This document shows positions 40,759-48,903 of a stretch of DNA of 64,000 bases, piece by piece. The stretch is taken from assembly GCF_040253635.1 (NCBI RefSeq), contig NZ_JBEJGX010000003.1:3286001-3350000 (forward strand), read 5' to 3'. The notes beneath the pieces are model-generated. The model saw nothing but the letters and a program-made list of their open reading frames with translations, was not told where the DNA came from and searched no databases. Position 1 is the stretch's first letter. Each line of letters opens with the position of its first letter. Position numbers and translations under genes: made by a program. This DNA is from Streptomyces sp. Edi2 (GTDB lineage Bacteria; Actinomycetota; Actinomycetes; Streptomycetales; Streptomycetaceae).

Positions 40759-41079
40759 TCAGGAACCGCAGTCGCGGCCGGCGTCGCACTGCCAGCCGGA
40801 AAAGCCGCCTTCGCGGGGATGGTCGATGTCGTGGTCGAATTGGAAGAACCCCCAGGCCACCCAGGCAATGAAGGCGACGCAAAGAGCGAGTCCGGCCCAC
40901 AGGGCCAGTTTCTTCAGAAGGGCGCGGGGATCCGCCTCGCCCTCAGGGGCGTCGGGCCCGCACCGGCCGTCTCCGTTCCGCACGCCGGGGACCTCCCGGT
41001 CGTCACGCTTCTTGGCCTCGACGTGGTAAGTGATCTCGCCACCCTCCCTTCCTCGCAAGCGAGTGACGTAAATCCGCAT
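40759..41079 (-). CDS. Small single-span membrane protein, 106 aa
   Basis: No family is recognised. The frame has a polar N-terminal half (EITYHVEAKKRDDREVPGVR), a clear hydrophobic span (LALWAGLALCVAFIAWVAWG) near residues 60-80, and a short C-terminus with two Cys (GWQCDAGRDCGS). The only ATG (41079) lies inside the decayed tRNA-Cys fragment on the opposite strand, so the first ~10 residues may be accidental and the true start may differ. It is located between tRNA-Cys and its partial copy, which marks it as possible cargo of a degenerate integrated element. Confidence 0.5.
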   Translation of the reverse strand: MRIYVTRLRGREGGEITYHVEAKKRDDREVPGVRNGDGRCGPDAPEGEADPRALLKKLALWAGLALCVAFIAWVAWGFFQFDHDIDHPREGGFSGWQCDAGRDCGS

Positions 41080-41092
41080 CCCGCCGCGGCCT
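41052..41092 (+). pseudogene. Decayed copy of the tRNA-Cys 3' half
   Basis: 41057-41092 aligns without gaps to the last 36 nt of tRNA-Cys (40615-40650) with 29 matches, including ATCCCGCC-CGGCCT. A few bases 5' of it also match CTCGC. Orientation is the same as the tRNA, 442 bp away. This is the shape of a tRNA attachment-site duplication that has decayed. Confidence 0.7.
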
Positions 41093-41158
41093 GCGCAGGC
41101 TCCGGCCAGGAGCGGGAGCGGGGCCGCGCGGGCCCCGCCGGGCCACGTACCCGCCCCC

Positions 41159-43498
41159 TCAGGCCCCCTGCTGCTGCACCACCTGCGCCACCGCCGCCTG
41201 GGGGCGGATCGGGAGGCGGCCGATGGGGCGGCCGGTGGCGGCGCGGACGGCGGAGGCGACGGCGGCCGGGGAGGTGACGACCGGGACCGCGCTGGCGGGC
41301 TTGGCGCCGAAGGGGGCGACCACGTCCCGTTCCTCGACGAGCTTGACGATGCGGATGTCCGGGGCGTCCAGGGCGGTCGGCAGCGCGTAGCCGGTGAGGT
41401 CGGGGTGGCGGACCTGGCCGCGGGTGGTGCGCAGGTTCTCCATCAAGGCCGCGCCCAGGCCCTGGGTGACCCCGGCCTCGATACGGGCCCGCAGCTGGCG
41501 GGGGTTGAGCACCCGGCCGACGTCCTGGGCGACGGTCATCTCCACGACGCGGATGGTGCCGAGTTCGATGTCGACATCGGCGACGCAGCGGATCGCGCAG
41601 AAGGCGAGGCCGACGAACGCGTCGCCCTGGCCGGCCTCGTCCAGCGGCTCGGTGGGATGCGGGCGGCACTGGGCGGTGGCCCACAGTTCCTTGCCGTCCA
41701 GCGCCTCGGCGACGGTGGTGCTGAGCACCCCGTCGTACGAGGTGATCTTGCCGTCGTTGATCTGCAGCAGCTCGGTGGACATCCCGAACTTGTGGGCCAG
41801 CGGCTGCAGCAGCTGCCTACGGACCATCTTGGCGGCGCGCTCGACGGCGCCGCCGGAGACCCAGGTGTGCCGCCCGTGGCAGGCCGCGCCGGCCGGCGGC
41901 TGGTCGGTGTCGGCGCCGGCGACATGCACCTCGTCGATGCCGAGGGTTTCCTGCACGATCTGCCGCGCCAGGGTGGAGAACCCCGACCCCGTCTCGACCG
42001 CGGCGCAGATGACGTGTGCCACCGAGCCGCTGACCTTGACGGTGGCGGTGGAGACCTCGTCGGTGCCCTCCGCGCCGAGCATGTGCACCATGCCCAGCGC
42101 ATAGCCGACACCGCGGCGCACCGCGCCCGGTTCGCCCGCCCCCTCGGGACCGCCCGGCAGCAGCCACTCCGCTTCGGGCGCGTCCTTGGGCAGCTCGGGA
42201 AGCGGCGCTTCCTTGACGGCGTGCAGGAGTTCGGCGACCGGGGCCGGGCAGGTCACCGTCTGCCCCGTGGGCAGCAGGTCTCCGGTGGCCATGACGTTGC
42301 GCAGCCGGATCTCGTCGGGCTCCAGGCCCAGCCGGGCGGCCAGCTTGTCCATCTGGCCCTCGTAGGCGGCACAGACCTGCAACGCGCCCTCGCCGCGCAC
42401 ATGGCCGGACGGGGGGTTGTTGGTGCGCACCGCCCAGCCGTCGACCACGGCGTGCGGGACGACGTACGGGCCGCAGGAGAAGGAGACGGCCGCGGCCAGC
42501 GCGTCGGCGGAGGTGTCCGCGTAGGCACCGGCGTCCATCAGGATCTGGGCCTCCACCTTGACCAGCGTGCCGTCGGCGTCCGCATGGTGGCGGTAGCGCA
42601 GCAGCGTGGGGTGGCGGTGGGCGTGCGAGAGGAAGGACTCCTCGCGGGTGGCGGCGAGCTTGACGGGGCAGCCCGTCCGCAGCGCCAGCAGGCCGAGCGG
42701 CAGTTGGATGCCGGGGTCCTCGCGGTCGGCGGTGGCGCCGGGCACACCGGTCACCACGACCTTGACCTGGTCCGGCTCCAGCCCGAAGGAGGCGGCGGCC
42801 AGATCGCGGTCGGTGTGCGGGTCCGTGGAAGCGGTGTAGATCTCCACGCCGCCGTCGGGGCGCGGCACCGCGAGTCCGGCCTCGGCCCCGATGGGCGCCG
42901 GGTCCTGGCGGCCGATCCGGTAAAGCCCCTCGACCATCACCTCGCCCACCACATCGGGGTCGCCGAAGCGGAGCGGGATGTGCCGGATGAGGTTGCCGTC
43001 CGGGTGCAACGGCTCGGCCTCGAAGGCCAGTTGGGGGTCGGTGACCGCGTCCTGGATCTCGTACTCGACGGCGATGGCGGCGGCGGCCAGCCGCGCCGTG
43101 TCGGGGTGCTCGGCGGCCACCGCGGCGATCGGCTCGCCGTGGTGGCGGACCTCGTCCTTGGCGAAGACCGGGCGGTCGGCGGTGCCCCGGCCGTGCCCCG
43201 CGTCGCCGGGGACGTCCTCGTGCGTGACGACGACGCGCACGCCGGGCATCTCCTCGGCGTGCTGGGTGTCGATCGACAGGATGCGCGCCCGCGGGTGCGG
43301 CGAGCGCAGCACCGCGGCCCACAGCAGCCCCTCGGCCCACAGGTCGGCGGCGTACGGGAAGGTGCCCTCGGCCTTGGCCGGTGCGTCGGCGGACGGCAGG
43401 GACACGCCCAGGCCGTGCAGCGGCTCCTCGGGGGGGATCGGGACGCCCGCCGCGGGGGTCGCGGTGACGGCCGCTGCGCCGTCGGACGTGCCACTCAT
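41159..43498 (-). CDS. Xanthine dehydrogenase-family molybdopterin-binding subunit
   Basis: The large catalytic subunit, 779 residues, of a molybdenum hydroxylase (xanthine/hypoxanthine dehydrogenase or a related aldehyde/CO-type enzyme). Motifs include the N-terminal KAEGTFPYAADLWAEGLLWAAVLRS (hammerhead entry, read as two parts), VRHHGEPIAAVAAEH, GEGALQVCAAYEGQMD and the late GTIRVVEMTVAQDVGRVLNP with QGLGAALMENL, matching the Mo-binding domains. ATG 43498 overlaps the stop of a 38-residue micro-ORF (ATGA). It works with the [2Fe-2S] and FAD subunits encoded upstream in the same operon. The true substrate is not determined. Confidence 0.92.
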   Translation of the reverse strand: MSGTSDGAAAVTATPAAGVPIPPEEPLHGLGVSLPSADAPAKAEGTFPYAADLWAEGLLWAAVLRSPHPRARILSIDTQHAEEMPGVRVVVTHEDVPGDAGHGRGTADRPVFAKDEVRHHGEPIAAVAAEHPDTARLAAAAIAVEYEIQDAVTDPQLAFEAEPLHPDGNLIRHIPLRFGDPDVVGEVMVEGLYRIGRQDPAPIGAEAGLAVPRPDGGVEIYTASTDPHTDRDLAAASFGLEPDQVKVVVTGVPGATADREDPGIQLPLGLLALRTGCPVKLAATREESFLSHAHRHPTLLRYRHHADADGTLVKVEAQILMDAGAYADTSADALAAAVSFSCGPYVVPHAVVDGWAVRTNNPPSGHVRGEGALQVCAAYEGQMDKLAARLGLEPDEIRLRNVMATGDLLPTGQTVTCPAPVAELLHAVKEAPLPELPKDAPEAEWLLPGGPEGAGEPGAVRRGVGYALGMVHMLGAEGTDEVSTATVKVSGSVAHVICAAVETGSGFSTLARQIVQETLGIDEVHVAGADTDQPPAGAACHGRHTWVSGGAVERAAKMVRRQLLQPLAHKFGMSTELLQINDGKITSYDGVLSTTVAEALDGKELWATAQCRPHPTEPLDEAGQGDAFVGLAFCAIRCVADVDIELGTIRVVEMTVAQDVGRVLNPRQLRARIEAGVTQGLGAALMENLRTTRGQVRHPDLTGYALPTALDAPDIRIVKLVEERDVVAPFGAKPASAVPVVTSPAAVASAVRAATGRPIGRLPIRPQAAVAQVVQQQGA

Positions 43499-43611
43499 GC
43501 CGCAACCTCGCTTCGCCCGGTCTCGTACCCGCTCGGCGTGCACCTCTCGGTGCTCTCGATGTCTCTCCCCCGGCATCCGGCCCGGGAGGCTCCCCTGCTG
43601 CGCTCGTTCAT
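43495..43611 (-). CDS. 38-aa micro-ORF coupling Fe-S and Mo subunit genes
   Basis: The frame begins at ATG 43611, which overlaps the stop of the Fe-S subunit gene (ATGA), and ends in a TGA that overlaps the start of the molybdopterin subunit (ATGA). The peptide starts MNERSRGASRAG and ends GRSEVAA. It shares M-ERS-G, AG-R, I---ERC-P and RSE with the 35-residue frame at the other subunit junction. Two homologous frames with perfect double coupling suggest they are translated. A role as ribosome relay or small partner is inference; a spread repeat element is the alternative. Confidence 0.55.
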   Translation of the reverse strand: MNERSRGASRAGCRGRDIESTERCTPSGYETGRSEVAA

Positions 43612-45887
43612 GCGGAGCCTCCCGAGTGCGGATCCTGGTCGTGCGGGGCGTGGCCCATGGGGTCTGCGGGGCCTGCCTGATGGGGGATACGGGCGGTGTC
43701 CGCCGGCGCCGACCCGTCCGTGTCGTCCGCCGGTCCGTAGGCGGCCTCCGCCGACTCCGCACGGGCCTTGACGACCTCGTCGACGGCGTCCAGCACCCCC
43801 CGGTAGCCCGAGCAGCGGCAGAGGTTGCCGCACAGCGCCTTACGGGTCTCCAGCTCGCTGGGGGCGTGATTGCCCTCCAGGAGGTCATGGACGGTCATCG
43901 CCATCCCCGGTACGCAGAAGCCGCACTGCACCGCACCGGAGGCGGTCAGCGCGCGCTGCACGTCGGAGGGCTCACCGTTCTCCGCGAGCCCTTCGACCGT
44001 ACGGACCTCGCTGCCCGCCGTGGTGGCCGCGGGCACCAGGCAGGACGCCACCAGCCGCCCGTCCACCTGGACGGAGCAGGCCCCGCACTCGCCCTGCGAG
44101 CAGCCGTCCTTGGCGCCGGCCAGGCCCAGCCGCTCGCGCAGCACGTAGAGCAGCGACTCGCCGATCCAGGCGTCGGTGACCGGCCGGTCGATGCCGTTCA
44201 CCCGCAGGACGTAGGAGGCGGCGGGGTGTTCGTCGAAGTCTTCGGCGTCGCTCTCTCCCGCCGCATCGGCCTCGTCCGCCACCTCGGCCCCGACGGGGCC
44301 CTCGGTGTCACCGGCCGGAATCCCGCTGCCGCCGCCACTGCCACTACCGCTACCGGTGGCGTCGGCGGTGCCGCTGCCGTCCTCGCCGGGGCGCTCGACC
44401 GCCCCAAGGGTCTCGCCCCTCCCGGCGTTCTCGTGTGCCCCGGCGGTGTCGTCCGCCCCGGCACTCCCGTCCGCCCCGGCATTGCCCTCCGCCCCTGAGC
44501 CCTCGCCGGCGTGCCCGGCGGCTCTCGGGTCCGCGAGGCCGTCGAGGTCCGTGAGACCGCCGAGGTCGGTGCGGCCGCCGAGGTCCGTGAGCCCGGTGTG
44601 CTCGCCGTGCTGCGGCACCGCGTCCGCAAGGCCGTCAGCAGCCGGGGTGGCGGGCGTCTTGTGCCCGGCCGCGTCGGTGAGCGCGAACTCGCCGGAGTCC
44701 TCCCGCCGTTCGCCTGCTGCCGCCGGGATCGTCCAGTCGGCCGCTGCGCCGGGCGCGTCCACCATCCCGTCGGGCCGGTCCGCCGGTTCCTGGTGCCGCG
44801 GCCCGTCGTGCGGCGACTGCACCGGGTCCCCGGCGGGCGGCCACTGGGCCAGCGCGTCGGCCGGCAGCGACCAGTGCCCGGTCGCCGCGCCTGCCGCGCC
44901 ACCTGCCGCACCGTGCGGGACACCCGCGCCCGTTCCGTACGGGTCGGCGCCCGACGGGTCCGTGCCGCGGGGCCGTTCGGCCTCCGGCTCGGTGCCGCGG
45001 CCCGGGAGGCCGTGTTCGTGCGCGTACGGGTCGCCCGCGGCGCCGCCGAAGTGTGCGGGCACCGCGCCACCGCGTGAAGCGTCGTGCGGCGCCGCGGGAT
45101 GCGTTTCGGCTCCACCGGTGGCGGCCGGACCGGTGGTGAAGTTCCAGTGCCCGGTACCGGCGGCCTCGGCGGCGTCCGCCGGGTTCCCGGCACCGTCGTA
45201 CGCGCCGGCGCCCGGGTACCCGCCCCCCTGGTAACCGGTGGCGCCACCGGCCCCCACAGGGCCGGGATGTCCGTGATGCCCCCCATGGGCGGGGTGGCCC
45301 GGATGACCGCCGGAAGGGGCCGTATGCCCCGTCAGTCCGTCATCGTCGACCAGGTATTCGCCGGATTCCTCCAGGCCGTCGTCCGCCGCGGCGGGGACCG
45401 ACCAGGCGCCGTGGTTGCCGGCCTCCGGGCTGCCCGCGACGGGCCAGTCCACCGGGTCGCCGTGCCACGACCGGGCCGCCTCGGGGGCGTCGCCGTGGTA
45501 GCCCTCGGCGGCGCCGTGGTGGGCCGCGTACTCCGCCTGGGCCGGGTATCCCGCGGACGAGTCGGCGTATCCGGCCGAGGGGTCCGCGAAGGGCATCGTC
45601 CACTGGCCGGTGGCCGACGGGTCGGTGCCCGCGCCCGCGACCGGCGGCGCGGGCTCGTGCGGGGTGAAGGAGGCGGGCGGGGTGTAGCCGTGACCGGGTG
45701 CGGCGAGCGGTTCGGTGCCCGGGGTGCCGTACCGGGGTGATCCGCCGCCGTAGGCCCCGGTGGTGAAGCCCTCCGGGAGCTGTACGAAGGCCGTCGCCTC
45801 CGACTCGTACTCGCCGCCCTGCGGCAGCGGCTGCCAGCCGTGTTCGGGGTGCGGCTGGTACGGATGGCGGTTGTCGGCGTCGCTCAT
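43608..45887 (-). CDS. Xanthine dehydrogenase-type [2Fe-2S] subunit with ~550-aa N-terminal extension
   Basis: A 759-residue protein. The C-terminal ~165 residues (about 555-720) are a complete small subunit: plant-type ferredoxin Cys in DGCSQGECGACSV and VASCLVP, then the second cluster CGFCVPG and CGNLCRCSG. Normal subunits are about 160-200 residues. Residues 1-554 are disordered, rich in Gly, Ala, Pro, His and Asp, with a spaced motif G-x-W-[ST]-x-P-A: GQWTMPFA, GAWSVPAA, GHWSLPAD, DWTIPAAA and the looser GHWNFTTG. ATG 45887 overlaps the preceding micro-ORF stop (ATGA). The extension's function is unknown. Confidence 0.9.
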   Translation of the reverse strand: MSDADNRHPYQPHPEHGWQPLPQGGEYESEATAFVQLPEGFTTGAYGGGSPRYGTPGTEPLAAPGHGYTPPASFTPHEPAPPVAGAGTDPSATGQWTMPFADPSAGYADSSAGYPAQAEYAAHHGAAEGYHGDAPEAARSWHGDPVDWPVAGSPEAGNHGAWSVPAAADDGLEESGEYLVDDDGLTGHTAPSGGHPGHPAHGGHHGHPGPVGAGGATGYQGGGYPGAGAYDGAGNPADAAEAAGTGHWNFTTGPAATGGAETHPAAPHDASRGGAVPAHFGGAAGDPYAHEHGLPGRGTEPEAERPRGTDPSGADPYGTGAGVPHGAAGGAAGAATGHWSLPADALAQWPPAGDPVQSPHDGPRHQEPADRPDGMVDAPGAAADWTIPAAAGERREDSGEFALTDAAGHKTPATPAADGLADAVPQHGEHTGLTDLGGRTDLGGLTDLDGLADPRAAGHAGEGSGAEGNAGADGSAGADDTAGAHENAGRGETLGAVERPGEDGSGTADATGSGSGSGGGSGIPAGDTEGPVGAEVADEADAAGESDAEDFDEHPAASYVLRVNGIDRPVTDAWIGESLLYVLRERLGLAGAKDGCSQGECGACSVQVDGRLVASCLVPAATTAGSEVRTVEGLAENGEPSDVQRALTASGAVQCGFCVPGMAMTVHDLLEGNHAPSELETRKALCGNLCRCSGYRGVLDAVDEVVKARAESAEAAYGPADDTDGSAPADTARIPHQAGPADPMGHAPHDQDPHSGGSA

Positions 45888-45991
45888 GCCGAGCCCTCAC
45901 TTCGCTCGGCCCCGCCTTCGCGAGGCGCGCACCTTTCGATGATGATCTCCCGGCCTCCGGCCGGGGGGAGCCCCACGCTGCGCTCGCTCAT
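45884..45991 (-). CDS. 35-aa micro-ORF coupling FAD and Fe-S subunit genes
   Basis: ATG 45991 overlaps the FAD-subunit stop (ATGA), and the TGA at 45884-45886 overlaps the Fe-S subunit start (ATGA). The peptide begins MSERSVGLPPAGGREIIIER and ends GGAERSEGSA. It is homologous to the 38-residue frame at the next junction. The DNA contains a CCGGCC-rich hairpin (CTCCCGGCCTCCGGCCGGGGGGAG-like, 45947-45970), so an RNA structure may matter as well as, or instead of, the peptide. Confidence 0.55.
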   Translation of the reverse strand: MSERSVGLPPAGGREIIIERCAPREGGAERSEGSA

Positions 45992-46884
45992 GAGAGCGCC
46001 CTCCCCAGTGCGCGGCGGGCCAGGGCTGCCACCGTACGGCGCAGGTGGAGTGCGGCCGGCGGCAGGGCGGCCGGTTCCGAACCGTCCTCGGGCGGTGCCG
46101 GGTCGGGGATACAGGCGGCGGCGACATAGTCACCGAAGGCCGTCAGCGCCTCGGGCACCAGGCCGCGTTCGCCGTCCCAGTCGATGAGCGAGGCCACCCA
46201 CTGCTCGGCCTCCAGGGGACGCAGCGGCATGGCGGCGACGGCGCCCACCGCGCAGCGCACCCCGCGCCGGGCCGGGTCCAGGACGAGCGAGACGGAGGCG
46301 GTGGCCCGGCCGGGGCCGGTGCGGCCGGTGGCCTTGAGGAAGGTCTGCGGGGCGTGCAGCAGCGGCACCCGCACGAAGCCGACGAGTTCACCGGGGCCCA
46401 GCATCTCCCGGCCCGCCAGGAGGTGGCTGACCGGGATCTCGCGGCGGCTGCCCCCGGGGCCGGCGATGATCACCGTGGCTTCGAGGGCGGCGAGCACCGG
46501 GAGGGTGTCGCCCGTGGGCGCCGAGGTCACGATGTTGCCGCCGAGGGTGCCGGCGTTGCGGACCTGCGGCGGGCCGGCCGCGCGGGCGGCGGCGGCGAGG
46601 CCCGGGATCAGGGCGGCGAAGTCGGGGCGTCCCATACGGGCGAGGGTGAGGCCGGCGCCGAGCAGCGCATGGCCGTCCAGGTACTGCCAGCCGCGCATCT
46701 CGCTGATCCGGCCGAGGCCCACCAGGGCTGCGGGCCTGAGGAGTCCGGCGTTGACCGCCGCCATGAGATCGGTGCCGCCTGCGACGGGCACGGCGGCAGG
46801 CATGGCGGTGAGCGCCGCCACCGCCTCGTCGAGCGAGGCCGGCAACGTCACCGTGTGCGACGCGTGCGGTGCGTGCGTGGTCAA
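45988..46884 (-). CDS. Xanthine dehydrogenase-type FAD-binding subunit
   Basis: A 298-residue medium subunit. The FAD/ADP-binding landmarks are VPVAGGTDLMAAVNAGLL and the second motif AGPPQVRNAGTLGGNIVTSAPTGD (read as QVRNAGTLGGN and APTGDTLP). The CODH_C domain follows (LKATGRTGPGRATASVSLVL). It starts at TTG 46884 (GGAAGGGGC upstream); no ATG or GTG is well placed. It heads the operon FAD subunit, micro-ORF, Fe-S subunit, micro-ORF, Mo subunit. A set of 15-bp tandem repeats lies 230 bp upstream. Confidence 0.9.
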   Translation of the reverse strand: MTTHAPHASHTVTLPASLDEAVAALTAMPAAVPVAGGTDLMAAVNAGLLRPAALVGLGRISEMRGWQYLDGHALLGAGLTLARMGRPDFAALIPGLAAAARAAGPPQVRNAGTLGGNIVTSAPTGDTLPVLAALEATVIIAGPGGSRREIPVSHLLAGREMLGPGELVGFVRVPLLHAPQTFLKATGRTGPGRATASVSLVLDPARRGVRCAVGAVAAMPLRPLEAEQWVASLIDWDGERGLVPEALTAFGDYVAAACIPDPAPPEDGSEPAALPPAALHLRRTVAALARRALGRALS

Positions 46885-47113
46885 GCCAGCTGCCCCTTCC
46901 CCGGTGTCCCGGCAGTTCCGCTCCGCCGTACGGTACGTGCTCACGGCTCGGACGTGGCAACTCTGGCACATCTTCCCGGGCCCCCGGCGCGAGGGTCCGC
47001 GAACCGGCGATCCGTCCCCGAACAGGGTGCTGGTCCGGTTTCGTCCGCCGCCGGCCGTGCGGGAACTGCGGTGCGGCGCATCGGCGGAGGAGTCCGGCCG
47101 GGCGCACACCACC

Positions 47114-47173
47114 GCTACGGCGATGCCCGGTACAGCAGTGCCCGGTACGGCGATACCCGGCCACGGAAGTGCC
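47114..47173. repeat. Four 15-bp tandem repeats upstream of the molybdoenzyme operon
   Basis: Units at 47114, 47129, 47144 and 47159 follow GGTACRGCRRTRCCC with a few substitutions. They lie in the 363-bp gap (46885-47247) between the FAD-subunit start and the GH20 stop, which holds no gene. Confidence 0.8.
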
Positions 47174-47247
47174 GTGGTGCGGGGTGACGCCGTACCGGAC
47201 CACCGTCCCAGGGTCCGGCCCTGCGAGCGCCCTCCTTGCACCGGGGC

Positions 47248-48903
47248 TCACACGTTTGGGGGCGCCCCGTCGATCGGGCGTCCGAGCACGCCGGGCCGTT
47301 TCTGCCAGGGGAGGGGGCCGCCGGGCGGGCGGTAGCCGACACCCAGGGCGTCGAGGCGGGCGTAGTGGACAGCCATCCGCCGGGTGAAGTCCTGGTAGTC
47401 GCGGTCGGCCGGTGCGGGCAGCCGCGACCAGGCGACCTCGGCGAAGGCGGCCAGCCGGGGAAACACCTGGTAGTCGAGGCGCTGCTGACTGTCCATGACC
47501 TCGGTCCAGGCGTTGGCCTGGGTACCCAGGACGTGCGCGGCCTGGTCCGCGGTCAGCTCCGGCGGCACCGGCTCGAAGCGGTAGACGTCCTCCAGGGTCC
47601 GTACGAAGCCGATCGGCACCGGCTCGTCCGGGGAGTGATGCTGACGGTGGTCCAGGTACACGTGCTGCTCGGGGCACATCACGACGTCATGGCCGGATTT
47701 CGCCGCGGCGATGCCTCCCGCGTAGCCGCGCCAGGAGGAGACCGCGGCGCCCTCGGCCAATCCGCCCTCCAGGATCTCGTCCCAGCCGATCAGCCGCCGG
47801 CCGCGGGCGGCGAGCCAGCGGTCGAAGTGCCGGATGAACCAGCTCTGCAGCCCGTCCTCACCGGCCAGTGACAGCTCGCCGATCCGGGCCCGGGCGGTGG
47901 CGGACGCCTTCCACTGGTCCTTGGGGCACTCGTCGCCCCCGAGGTGCACGAACCGCGAGGGGAAGAGCGCCAGGACCTCGTCGAGCACCTGCTCGTAGAA
48001 CCGCAGGGTGTTGTCGGTGGGCGCCAGTACGTTGGGGTTGACGCCCCAGGTGTCCCAGACCTTCAGGGAGGTGGTGTCGATGACGTCGGTGTTGCCGAGT
48101 TCCGGGTACGCGGCGATGGCGGCCTGCGAGTGTCCCGGGATGTCGATCTCGGGGACGACGGTGATATGCCGCTGGGCGGCGTAGGCGACGATCTCGCGGA
48201 TGTCGTCCTGGGTGTAGTAGCCGCCGTGCGGGCGCTCGTCCCAGAGGGGGGAGGCCCGGTGACCGATTTTGGTGCGCTCCCGCCAGCCGCCGGTCGCGGT
48301 CAGTTCCGGATAGCGGGCGATCTCGATCCGCCAGCCCTGGTCATCGGTGAGGTGGAGGTGCAGGACGTTGAGCTTGTGGGCGGCGAGCAGATCGAGGTAG
48401 CGCAGCACCCCCTCCTTGGGCAGGAAGTGCCGGGCGACATCGAGCAGCATGCCGCGCCAGGCGAAGCGGGGAGCGTCCTCGATGGTCTGCTGCGGCAGGA
48501 CGGCCGCGCGCCCGGGTGCGAGCGGGGCCCGGCGGAAGGCGTGCGGGCCGAGGAGCTGACGCAGCGTCTGCGCGCCCCAGAAGACGCCCGCCGGGCCGCC
48601 GCCGGTGATCCGTACGCCCCGGTGCGTGGCGGCCTCCAGGCGGTAGCCCTCTGCGGGCAGGGCCGGGTCGAGGGCGAGCACAAGGGTGCCGGCGGCGTCG
48701 GCGGAACCGGGCGGCAGCGGCAGGCCGAAGGCCGCGCCGAGAGTGGCGCGCAGCCAGCGCGCGGTGTCCTCGGTGCCGGGCCCGGCGGCCAACGCGGTGC
48801 CCTCGCCCAGCCGCACGGCGCAGCGGTAGGGCCCGTCGATGCTCAGCGGCGCCGGGACCAGCCCGCCGCCCGGTGCCGTGGGGGTGATGTCCGTGTCGGG
48901 CAT
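47248..48903 (-). CDS. GH20 beta-N-acetylhexosaminidase
   Basis: A 551-residue glycosidase releasing terminal GlcNAc (or GalNAc), feeding GlcNAc metabolism served by the PTS earlier in the window. The N-terminal GH20b domain precedes the catalytic barrel: FAWRGMLLDVARHFLPKE, LHLHLTDDQGWRIEI, VVPEIDIPGHSQAAIAAYP and the catalytic Asp-Glu pair in FVHLGGDECPK (near residue 323). It then has LIGWDEILEGG and an active-site Trp in GTQANAWTEV. There is no signal peptide from ATG 48903, so it is probably cytoplasmic, acting on imported chitobiose-like sugars. Four iteron-like repeats lie just upstream. Confidence 0.95.
   Translation of the reverse strand: MPDTDITPTAPGGGLVPAPLSIDGPYRCAVRLGEGTALAAGPGTEDTARWLRATLGAAFGLPLPPGSADAAGTLVLALDPALPAEGYRLEAATHRGVRITGGGPAGVFWGAQTLRQLLGPHAFRRAPLAPGRAAVLPQQTIEDAPRFAWRGMLLDVARHFLPKEGVLRYLDLLAAHKLNVLHLHLTDDQGWRIEIARYPELTATGGWRERTKIGHRASPLWDERPHGGYYTQDDIREIVAYAAQRHITVVPEIDIPGHSQAAIAAYPELGNTDVIDTTSLKVWDTWGVNPNVLAPTDNTLRFYEQVLDEVLALFPSRFVHLGGDECPKDQWKASATARARIGELSLAGEDGLQSWFIRHFDRWLAARGRRLIGWDEILEGGLAEGAAVSSWRGYAGGIAAAKSGHDVVMCPEQHVYLDHRQHHSPDEPVPIGFVRTLEDVYRFEPVPPELTADQAAHVLGTQANAWTEVMDSQQRLDYQVFPRLAAFAEVAWSRLPAPADRDYQDFTRRMAVHYARLDALGVGYRPPGGPLPWQKRPGVLGRPIDGAPPNV

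What the first reader, a model, noticed from the sequence alone, without database searches (positions are those of the whole stretch)
43495..45991. Two homologous, doubly ATGA-coupled micro-ORFs between the three molybdoenzyme subunits
Seen: the FAD-subunit stop overlaps the ATG of a 35-codon frame (45884-45991), whose stop overlaps the Fe-S subunit ATG. The Fe-S stop likewise overlaps a 38-codon frame (43495-43611), whose stop overlaps the Mo-subunit ATG. All four junctions are ATGA. The peptides are related (M-ERS-G..., ERC-P..., RSE near the end). Inference: they may be translation relays that set subunit ratios, small assembly partners, or a repeat element that kept the frame by selection. 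I know of no description of such peptides in xdh operons.
Basis: partly seen in the sequence, partly recalled or inferred. Interest (0 to 1): 0.72.

Follow-up and report, generated by a model that had tools for sequence, protein, structure and literature searches.

The report
Start-codon repeats that relay ribosomes
The two tiny genes between the subunits of this bacterial enzyme are copies of a short repeat, found in many actinobacteria, that sits exactly at gene start codons and keeps an open reading frame, apparently so that ribosomes can be handed on to the displaced gene.

Summary
In detail: two related micro-ORFs (35 and 38 codons) sit between the FAD, Fe-S and Mo subunit genes of a xanthine-dehydrogenase-family operon, with four ATGA junctions. 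They are not operon-specific and unlikely to be assembly partners. They are two of about 15 copies in this genome of an interspersed repeat (core 81 nt, 77-bp period). Relatives occur in Streptomyces, Kitasatospora, Micromonospora, Catellatospora, Nocardioides, Nocardia, Actinopolymorpha and a Mycobacterium-like genus; one genome gave 102 hits. Of 288 full-length copies, 277 have DTGA ends, a length divisible by three and no internal stop, and all 277 run into a gene-like ORF or another relay ORF. Of the other 11, 8 keep continuity differently (in-frame fusion, second relay, altered left end). 246 of 268 distinct copies carry a Shine-Dalgarno core just before the last ATG. The peptide is weakly conserved or not. 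Only 4 of 70 related xdh operons carry such a copy; most junctions are direct DTGA overlaps. The architecture matches mycobacterial MIRUs; homology to canonical MIRUs could not be tested. Best reading: a MIRU-like element whose translated micro-ORF makes insertion at start codons harmless through termination-reinitiation. Translation is inferred, not shown.

The parts
45988..47241 (-). FAD subunit gene of a xanthine-dehydrogenase-family molybdoenzyme; its TGA lies inside the ATGA at 45988-45991
   Evidence: ORF; Pfam FAD_binding_5 E 1.6e-39
45884..45991 (-). Repeat copy w1 = 35-codon relay micro-ORF, 108-nt 'long' form
   Evidence: model hit E 5.7e-16; 104 bp more than the direct overlap seen, by eye, in 27 of the 30 nearest loci
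45947..45967 (-). Hairpin inside the long form (9-bp stem, 3-nt loop)
   Evidence: 92.2% of 90 cells paired over 10 long copies; one pair with changes on both sides; modest support
45895..45898 (-). Shine-Dalgarno-like GAGG of w1, 7 nt before the Fe-S subunit ATG
   Evidence: sequence (columns); 246 of 268 distinct copies have an SD core 4-8 nt before the last ATG
43608..45887 (-). Fe-S subunit gene; starts on the last ATG of w1, stops in the first ATGA of w2
   Evidence: Fer2_2 E 2.7e-24
43495..43611 (-). Repeat copy w2 = 38-codon relay micro-ORF, 117 nt
   Evidence: model hit E 3.7e-12
43506..43509 (-). Shine-Dalgarno-like GAGG of w2, 7 nt before the Mo subunit ATG
   Evidence: sequence
41159..43498 (-). 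Mo subunit gene; starts on the last ATG of w2
   Evidence: domains (MoCoBD_1 E 2.6e-51, MoCoBD_2 E 2.4e-46, read from 41159-43498); the mechanical ORF starts further upstream, at 43888

Best explanation
w1 and w2 are copies of a MIRU-like interspersed repeat that occupies the start codon of a gene. Shown in nearly all copies examined: a copy begins with a DTGA (mostly ATGA), ends in ATGA, lies in the sense of transcription, carries one open frame from end to end, has a Shine-Dalgarno core usually 6-7 nt before its last ATG, and that last ATG opens the next gene or the next tandem copy. At the xdh junctions, most relatives without a copy have the two genes overlapping directly at DTGA. Inferred: the copy's first start codon takes over the gene's original start signal (coupling from an upstream stop, an SD, or a leaderless 5' end); the ribosome translates the peptide, typically 22-45 codons, and reinitiates at the overlapping ATG, helped by the built-in SD. 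Insertion is thereby nearly silent for expression, and selection removes copies whose frame no longer delivers ribosomes. The peptide is mostly a by-product. Tandem growth is VNTR-like. How copies disperse is unknown.
For: (1) Dispersed: 14 model hits in the own genome; own genome included, 25 of 296 genomes in 12 of 105 genera of the class and 19 of 295 genomes of the own genus; 5 to 102 hits in 13 genomes reached through named loci. (2) Frame: pattern scan with a free 30-60 nt gap: 79 of 81 distinct elements divisible by three and open, in six lengths. nhmmer over all loci then held: 277 of 288 full-length copies; model-found subset 145 of 151; 140 of 143 distinct model-found elements. Internal stops in those 140: 0 in frame 0, 20 and 67 in the other two frames, 51-62 after shuffling. 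(3) Exceptions: 8 of the 11 keep continuity (L103 and L222, the same copy, L160 and L275 by in-frame fusion; L276 by a new internal GTGA; L062 and L076 with the left TGA lost but the start kept; L212, a shorter form); the own-genome copy L009 reads as two linked ORFs. (4) Next ORF: gene-like in 233 of 277, another DTGA-linked micro-ORF in 44 of 277, none other; in the two shifted frames only 0 and 21 of 284 are gene-like. (5) SD core 4-8 nt before the last ATG in 246 of 268 distinct copies, against 10% of random places at 4-12 nt. (6) Empty sites: FAD/Fe-S junction a direct DTGA overlap in 64 of 67 readable operons, filled in 3; Fe-S/Mo junction direct in 47 of 65, this element in 3 (one with three tandem ORFs, 45+108+81 nt), other DTGA-linked micro-ORFs in 15. 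(7) Literature: gaps of about 20 nt almost abolish reinitiation coupling (PMC10666635, abstract).
Against: No ribosome-profiling, mass-spectrometry or reporter data were available; translation and reinitiation are inferred. Copies within a genome and in arrays are related, so counts are not independent. In GC-rich DNA stops are rare: only 20 of 140 copies have a stop in frame +1, so openness alone is weaker than length and exceptions together. pN/pS is 0.47-0.48 in three of five genomes, so some codon-level constraint exists (conservation of the DNA motif could also give this). Copies that fit badly: L189 (overruns the ATG by 8 nt), L196 (stop 8 nt before it), L080 (no left start); partial hits L069 and L182; L358 in the Mycobacterium-like genus, 68 nt and shifted; the chain that starts at a degenerate unit of L147 breaks, and those of L468 and L469 end unlinked in or near masked stretches. 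57 of 277 copies have no gene-like or relay ORF ending at the left end. No enzyme of dispersal was sought; in the five genomes compared, the closest copies at different loci still differ at 4 or more positions, so recent movement is not shown.
Confidence: 0.8

Rival explanations
1. The micro-ORFs encode functional small proteins, for instance assembly or cofactor-insertion partners of the molybdoenzyme.
For: pN/pS below 1 in Kitasatospora (0.48), Actinopolymorpha (0.47), G386 (0.47) and Catellatospora (0.74) copies; MSER starts and ERSE-like ends recur.
Against: Only 4 of 70 related xdh operons carry such a copy; copies lie before many unrelated genes. w1 against its G364 orthologue: 15 nonsynonymous and 1 synonymous change. 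pN/pS is 1.00 in Micromonospora. The conserved 3' DNA motif is read in another frame in Nocardioides and Actinopolymorpha, and two Micromonospora copies carry compensating shifts that change the peptide but keep 84 nt.
Confidence: 0.05
2. An adaptive regulatory device: the relay (or the hairpin in the long form) tunes the ratio of subunits by lowering reinitiation at each step, with tandem copy number as the dial.
For: 0, 1 or 3 relay ORFs of this family at the same Fe-S/Mo junction in related species; hairpin with 92.2% paired cells in 10 long forms; other micro-ORFs at the same junction in 15 of 65 operons.
Against: Most relatives do without it; no conservation of copy number; the hairpin insert is missing from the common 81-nt form. 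Covariation rests on one pair with two-sided change; 195 of 500 shuffles reach that count and all 500 reach the number of pair types.
Confidence: 0.12
3. An untranslated DNA repeat (REP/MITE-like) whose open frame is an accident of GC-rich sequence.
For: Dispersed, with conserved DNA ends; tandem expansion with exact copies; stops are rare in frame +1 as well (20 of 140).
Against: 278 of 284 copies with both ends have a length divisible by three (misses 73, 80, 82 three times, 83); 0 of 140 copies have frame-0 stops against 20 and 67 in the other frames; 4 of 5 distinct frameshifted copies regain continuity; SD placement.
Confidence: 0.03

Closest known systems
MIRU, mycobacterial interspersed repetitive units (Supply et al. 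1997; that paper is not held; known here through passages of PMC12548453, PMC4213456, PMC2453075 and PMC2734929)
   Same: Short dispersed and tandem units (the 77-bp period is that of the 81-nt form here; the 53-bp form is also congruent to 2 modulo 3); [quoted passage not shown] located at start codons; copy-number arrays
   Different: Found here in many non-mycobacterial genera; other lengths (mostly 69-138 nt); a long form with an in-frame hairpin; sequence homology to canonical M. tuberculosis MIRUs could not be tested
ATGA-overlap translational coupling by termination-reinitiation (Huber et al. 2019, PMC6728339; Huber et al. 2023, PMC10666635; abstracts and section lists seen)
   Same: Same junction geometry and the same presumed ribosome behaviour
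   Different: Those are pairs of ordinary genes; here a dispersed repeat supplies the coupling ORF and the SD
REP/ERIC-type palindromic intergenic repeats (recalled, no call)
   Same: Short dispersed chromosomal repeats without their own enzyme
   Different: Here the ends are direct motifs rather than palindromes, placement is at start codons in the sense orientation, and an ORF is kept

Membership tests
MIRU | 40-100 bp units scattered in the chromosome and in tandem | tested here: met
   Own genome about 15 copies including 3 in tandem at 77 bp; up to 102 hits per genome elsewhere. Some copies are longer (108-138 nt)
MIRU | Unit holds an ORF whose ends overlap the neighbouring ORFs by 4 nt | tested here: met
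   277 of 288 full-length copies have the end-to-end ORF; of these, all 277 meet a gene-like or relay ORF on the right, 220 of 277 on the left
MIRU | Placed at start codons, in the sense of transcription | tested here: met
   277 of 277 open copies followed by a gene-like ORF or another relay ORF
MIRU | Precise insertion at a DTGA site, with empty sites in relatives | tested here: met
   xdh junctions in 70 operons of the own genus; not tested at other loci
MIRU | Copy number varies between strains of one species | not tested
   Only variation between species seen (0, 1 or 3 at one junction)
MIRU | Sequence homology to canonical MIRUs of the M. tuberculosis complex | not testable with these tools
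   A published senX3-side primer was found in 0 of 396 genomes of the Mycobacterium-like genus; that genus does carry 69-nt members of this family
MIRU | Active mobility | not testable with these tools
   Presence/absence suggests gain, but in five genomes the closest copies at different loci differ at 4 or more positions
Xanthine dehydrogenase family operon | FAD, [2Fe-2S] and molybdopterin subunits | tested here: met
   Pfam matches above cut-offs for all three; substrate not tested

The most novel reading that the evidence does not exclude
MIRUs are one branch of a class-wide family of mobile, self-silencing actinobacterial elements that target start codons and carry a portable 'start-signal catcher + relay ORF + SD + ATG' cassette, so that purifying selection acts on translational continuity rather than on peptide or RNA structure.
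Probability: 0.55. Interest if true: 0.75.

Novelty: new member of a known kind. Interest (0 to 1): 0.62.

Why it matters
It turns two odd micro-ORFs into a natural assay of translational coupling. Hundreds of copies at start codons across actinobacteria show which solutions are tolerated: relay, in-frame fusion or split relay. It suggests that MIRU-type elements, described as mycobacterial, are class-wide. It also warns annotators that MSERSER-like small ORFs and N-terminal extensions may be repeat-derived, and it offers ready-made relay modules for testing reinitiation in high-GC bacteria.

Tried and rejected
Peptide function: rejected as the main explanation. RNA structure of the core: RNAalifold on 11 copies gave 12 pairs, 1 with two-sided change, covariation term unfavourable. 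Rfam over 41000-48000: two matches with E 0.53 and 0.82, both on the + strand inside the Fe-S gene region. Pfam on the two peptides: nothing at E 0.001. Plasmids and phages (blastn with one 81-nt copy): no match, so carriage by plasmids or phages is not supported at that sensitivity. Canonical M. tuberculosis MIRU: a primer pattern from PMC2453075 was searched in 296 class genomes with up to 3 mismatches (160 genomes matched, at the level expected of loose matches in my judgement) and exactly in 396 genomes of genus g8 (0 matches); homology left open. Genus g8 is taken as Mycobacterium by inference: many genomes, their sizes, and a PknA scoring 633.8 bits to PDB chain 4x3f (the source organism of that chain is recalled). 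Literature: the listings of searches (titles and starts of abstracts) show no description of this element in Streptomyces; only open-licence papers are held and several listings were capped, so this is not proof of absence. L363 and L364 were dropped by eye as false hits in g8.

Rows dropped before counts: 367 raw nhmmer hits, 303 after merging identical contexts, 288 full length; L103 and L222 are one copy that stayed twice in the 288. Of the 15 partial hits, 13 had an in-frame DTGA-DTGA ORF, L069 and L182 had none. w2 was not found by that nhmmer model but by R1, so it is not among the 288. Of the 70 xdh operons, 3 were unreadable at the first and 5 at the second junction. The script scored G364 'other' at the first junction, probably because its Fe-S domain lies in another frame further down; its 108-nt copy there was read and is counted as filled. 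Of the 34 loci whose relay chains were followed (L368, L380 and L465 are one locus), 19 reached a gene, 9 ran off the fetched stretch, 3 ended unlinked (L147, L468, L469), 3 could not be started (L454, L457, L461).
Full report
OBSERVATION. The window lies in a 9.8-Mb genome.

THE REPEAT. A blastn search with w1 found further copies in the own genome, among them three in tandem with a 77-bp period and two in tandem before another gene. Twelve copies cut out by hand have lengths 81, 108, 117 and 138, except one of 146 nt whose left end was a guess; 11 of 12 were single open frames from the first DTGA to the last ATGA. The 146-nt exception reads as two DTGA-linked ORFs. A sequence model (R1) gave 14 hits in the own genome: three are pieces of one locus, and one, weak, covers a 30-nt remnant that by eye is itself an open ATGA-ATGA ORF. 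With model R2 two further own copies appeared; both are in frame, one of them directly before rsmH. By eye the same junction is filled in G006.

DISTRIBUTION. Own genome included, models matched 3 of 21 relatives, 25 of 296 genomes of the class in 12 of 105 genera and 19 of 295 genomes of the own genus. In a Mycobacterium-like genus 30 of 148 genomes matched at the looser limit E 0.01; ten loci were read, two are false and eight real, seven of these single open frames of 69 nt and one (L358) shifted, with by eye an overlapping ATG frame that runs to the last ATGA. Runs over more than 40 genomes used strict filters, so absences are not firm. Thirteen genomes reached through those loci gave 5 to 102 hits: 102 in Catellatospora paridis, 74 in Actinopolymorpha alba, 70 in Kitasatospora aureofaciens. 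Lineages tend to have their own unit length: 69 nt in the Mycobacterium-like genus, 72-78 in Catellatospora, 81 in Kitasatospora, 84 in Micromonospora and Actinopolymorpha.

FRAME. The pattern fixed both ends but left the gap free. Still, 79 of 81 distinct elements had a length divisible by three and an open frame (lengths 72, 75, 78, 81, 84, 90; misses 82 and 73). Over all loci held, 288 full-length copies gave 284 with both ends, 278 divisible by three and 277 open. The subset found by models rather than by the pattern gave 145 of 151, and 140 of 143 distinct sequences. In those 140 there was no frame-0 stop, against 20 and 67 copies with stops in the other two sense frames and 51-62 after shuffling. 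Of the 11 remaining copies, L103 and L222 (one copy, fused in frame to a 369-codon frame), L160 and L275 (fused to the next copy) and L276 (a shift rescued by a new internal GTGA) lead on; L062 and L076 lost the left TGA but keep the start; L212 is a 12-nt shorter form. L189 overruns the ATG by 8 nt, L196 stops 8 nt short and L080 lacks a left start. Of 15 partial hits 13 are also in frame.

PLACEMENT. For all 277 open copies the last ATG opens a gene-like ORF (233; at least 60 codons and GC3 of 0.75 or more) or another DTGA-linked micro-ORF (44). On the left, the TGA ends a gene-like frame in 145, a micro-ORF in 75, and neither in 57, of which 25 have an SD-like core and 8 a -10-like hexamer just upstream. 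Controls: shifted frames are gene-like in 0 and 21 of 284 downstream and in 37 and 16 of 284 upstream, against 236 and 148 in the true frames. Chains of up to four relay ORFs occur. An SD core lies 4-8 nt before the last ATG in 246 of 268 distinct copies, most often GAGG with a 7-nt spacer; before the first start it lies at 4-12 nt in 170 of 268; random places have one at 4-12 nt in 10%.

PEPTIDE. Within genomes pN/pS was 0.48 (Kitasatospora, 18 copies), 0.74 (Catellatospora, 5), 0.47 (Actinopolymorpha, 21), 1.00 (Micromonospora, 10) and 0.47 (G386, 11); the two shifted frames gave 0.67-1.67. So there is some constraint in three groups, part of which may be the DNA motif. Against peptide conservation: w1 and its G364 orthologue differ by 15 nonsynonymous and 1 synonymous changes without an indel. 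The 3' motif GCGAAGCGAG is read as ..ERSE.. in some genera and ..GAKRV or ..AAKRG in others. Two Micromonospora copies read MSERQRANHQH.. and MSERQRVNHRH.. where others read MSERSERII.. or similar, still at 84 nt.

EMPTY SITES. The FAD subunit was found in 118 of 121 genomes of the genus. In the 30 nearest loci, judged by eye, 27 have the FAD stop in a DTGA without a copy and 3 carry a copy. A script then read 70 operons (these 30 plus 40 more, of the 118): the first junction is a direct overlap in 64, filled in 3 (G000, G364, G384) and unreadable in 3. The second is direct in 47, filled by this element in 3 (117 nt in G000, 108 in G364, 45+108+81 in G386), holds another DTGA-linked micro-ORF in 15, and is unreadable in 5; none of the 65 readable second junctions falls outside these classes. 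Fourteen of the 15 other ORFs end in DKEAA and have lengths from 81 to 111; one is read in DNA with an AAGGAGG before the start. The fifteenth (G400, 180 nt) is different and may be chance. Coupling of the subunits thus seems kept whatever lies between them. Empty sites at other loci were not examined.

MECHANISM. Tight coupling at stop-start overlaps (ATGA or TGATG) was measured in 13 of 14 gene pairs of E. coli and Haloferax (PMC6728339, abstract), and gaps of about 20 nt nearly abolish it in six pairs (PMC10666635, abstract). A 104-113 bp insertion without an ORF would be expected to uncouple the subunits, while a relay ORF with its own SD would not. This part is inference for Streptomyces. 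In the five genomes compared, copies at different loci differ by at least 4 positions while 13 of the 16 listed closest pairs inside arrays differ by 0-2, so arrays are young and dispersal older. The 108-nt form holds an in-frame hairpin (92.2% of 90 cells paired; one pair changed on both sides; only modest against shuffles).

COMPARISON. A review passage describes MIRUs as apparently mobile units that insert at start codons, so that an ORF within them is coupled with -4 nt spacing (PMC12548453). Canonical units are 77 and 53 bp (PMC4213456, PMC2453075), both congruent to 2 modulo 3 as a single-frame ATGA-linked unit must be. One paper's passage says the MIRUs of senX3-regX3 exist only in M. 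leprae and the M. tuberculosis complex (PMC4213456), while the review speaks of many mycobacteria. The elements here work like MIRUs and meet the tested features; membership by sequence is untested. The listings of the searches named under Tried and rejected show no description of them in Streptomyces.

Noticed in passing
43608-45887 (-): The Fe-S subunit has about 550 residues of low-complexity sequence before its [2Fe-2S] domains (Pfam matches only at residues 575-702), with recurring tryptophan-containing motifs by eye; relatives read have diverged extensions.
   Followed up: no
Fe-S/Mo junction of 15 xdh operons of the genus (e.g. L262, L431-L437): Other DTGA-linked micro-ORFs (81-111 nt in 14 of them, ending DKEAA; 180 nt in G400) occupy the junction that carries w2 here.
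   Followed up: partly
L258 (G364 xdh operon): The N-terminal extension and the iron-sulphur domain of the Fe-S gene lie in different frames: a shift in the gene or an assembly error.
   Followed up: no
G000:C3:7202134-7202163 (L034): A 30-nt remnant of the element, by eye still an open ATGA-to-ATGA ORF (MSERSEDSA*).
   Followed up: no
L222, Nocardia colli genome: An element with a shifted frame is fused in frame to a long frame (369 codons together) as an N-terminal extension, which annotation might report as part of the protein.
   Followed up: partly
G000:C2:1287-1311 and 296974-296998: The GGCCGG hairpin stretch of the long form matches 25-bp places near both ends of the 297-kb contig C2.
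   Followed up: no
L365 (Mycobacterium-like genome G271): A 69-nt member lies between a frame that looks like a penicillin-binding protein (by eye) and pknA.
   Followed up: no
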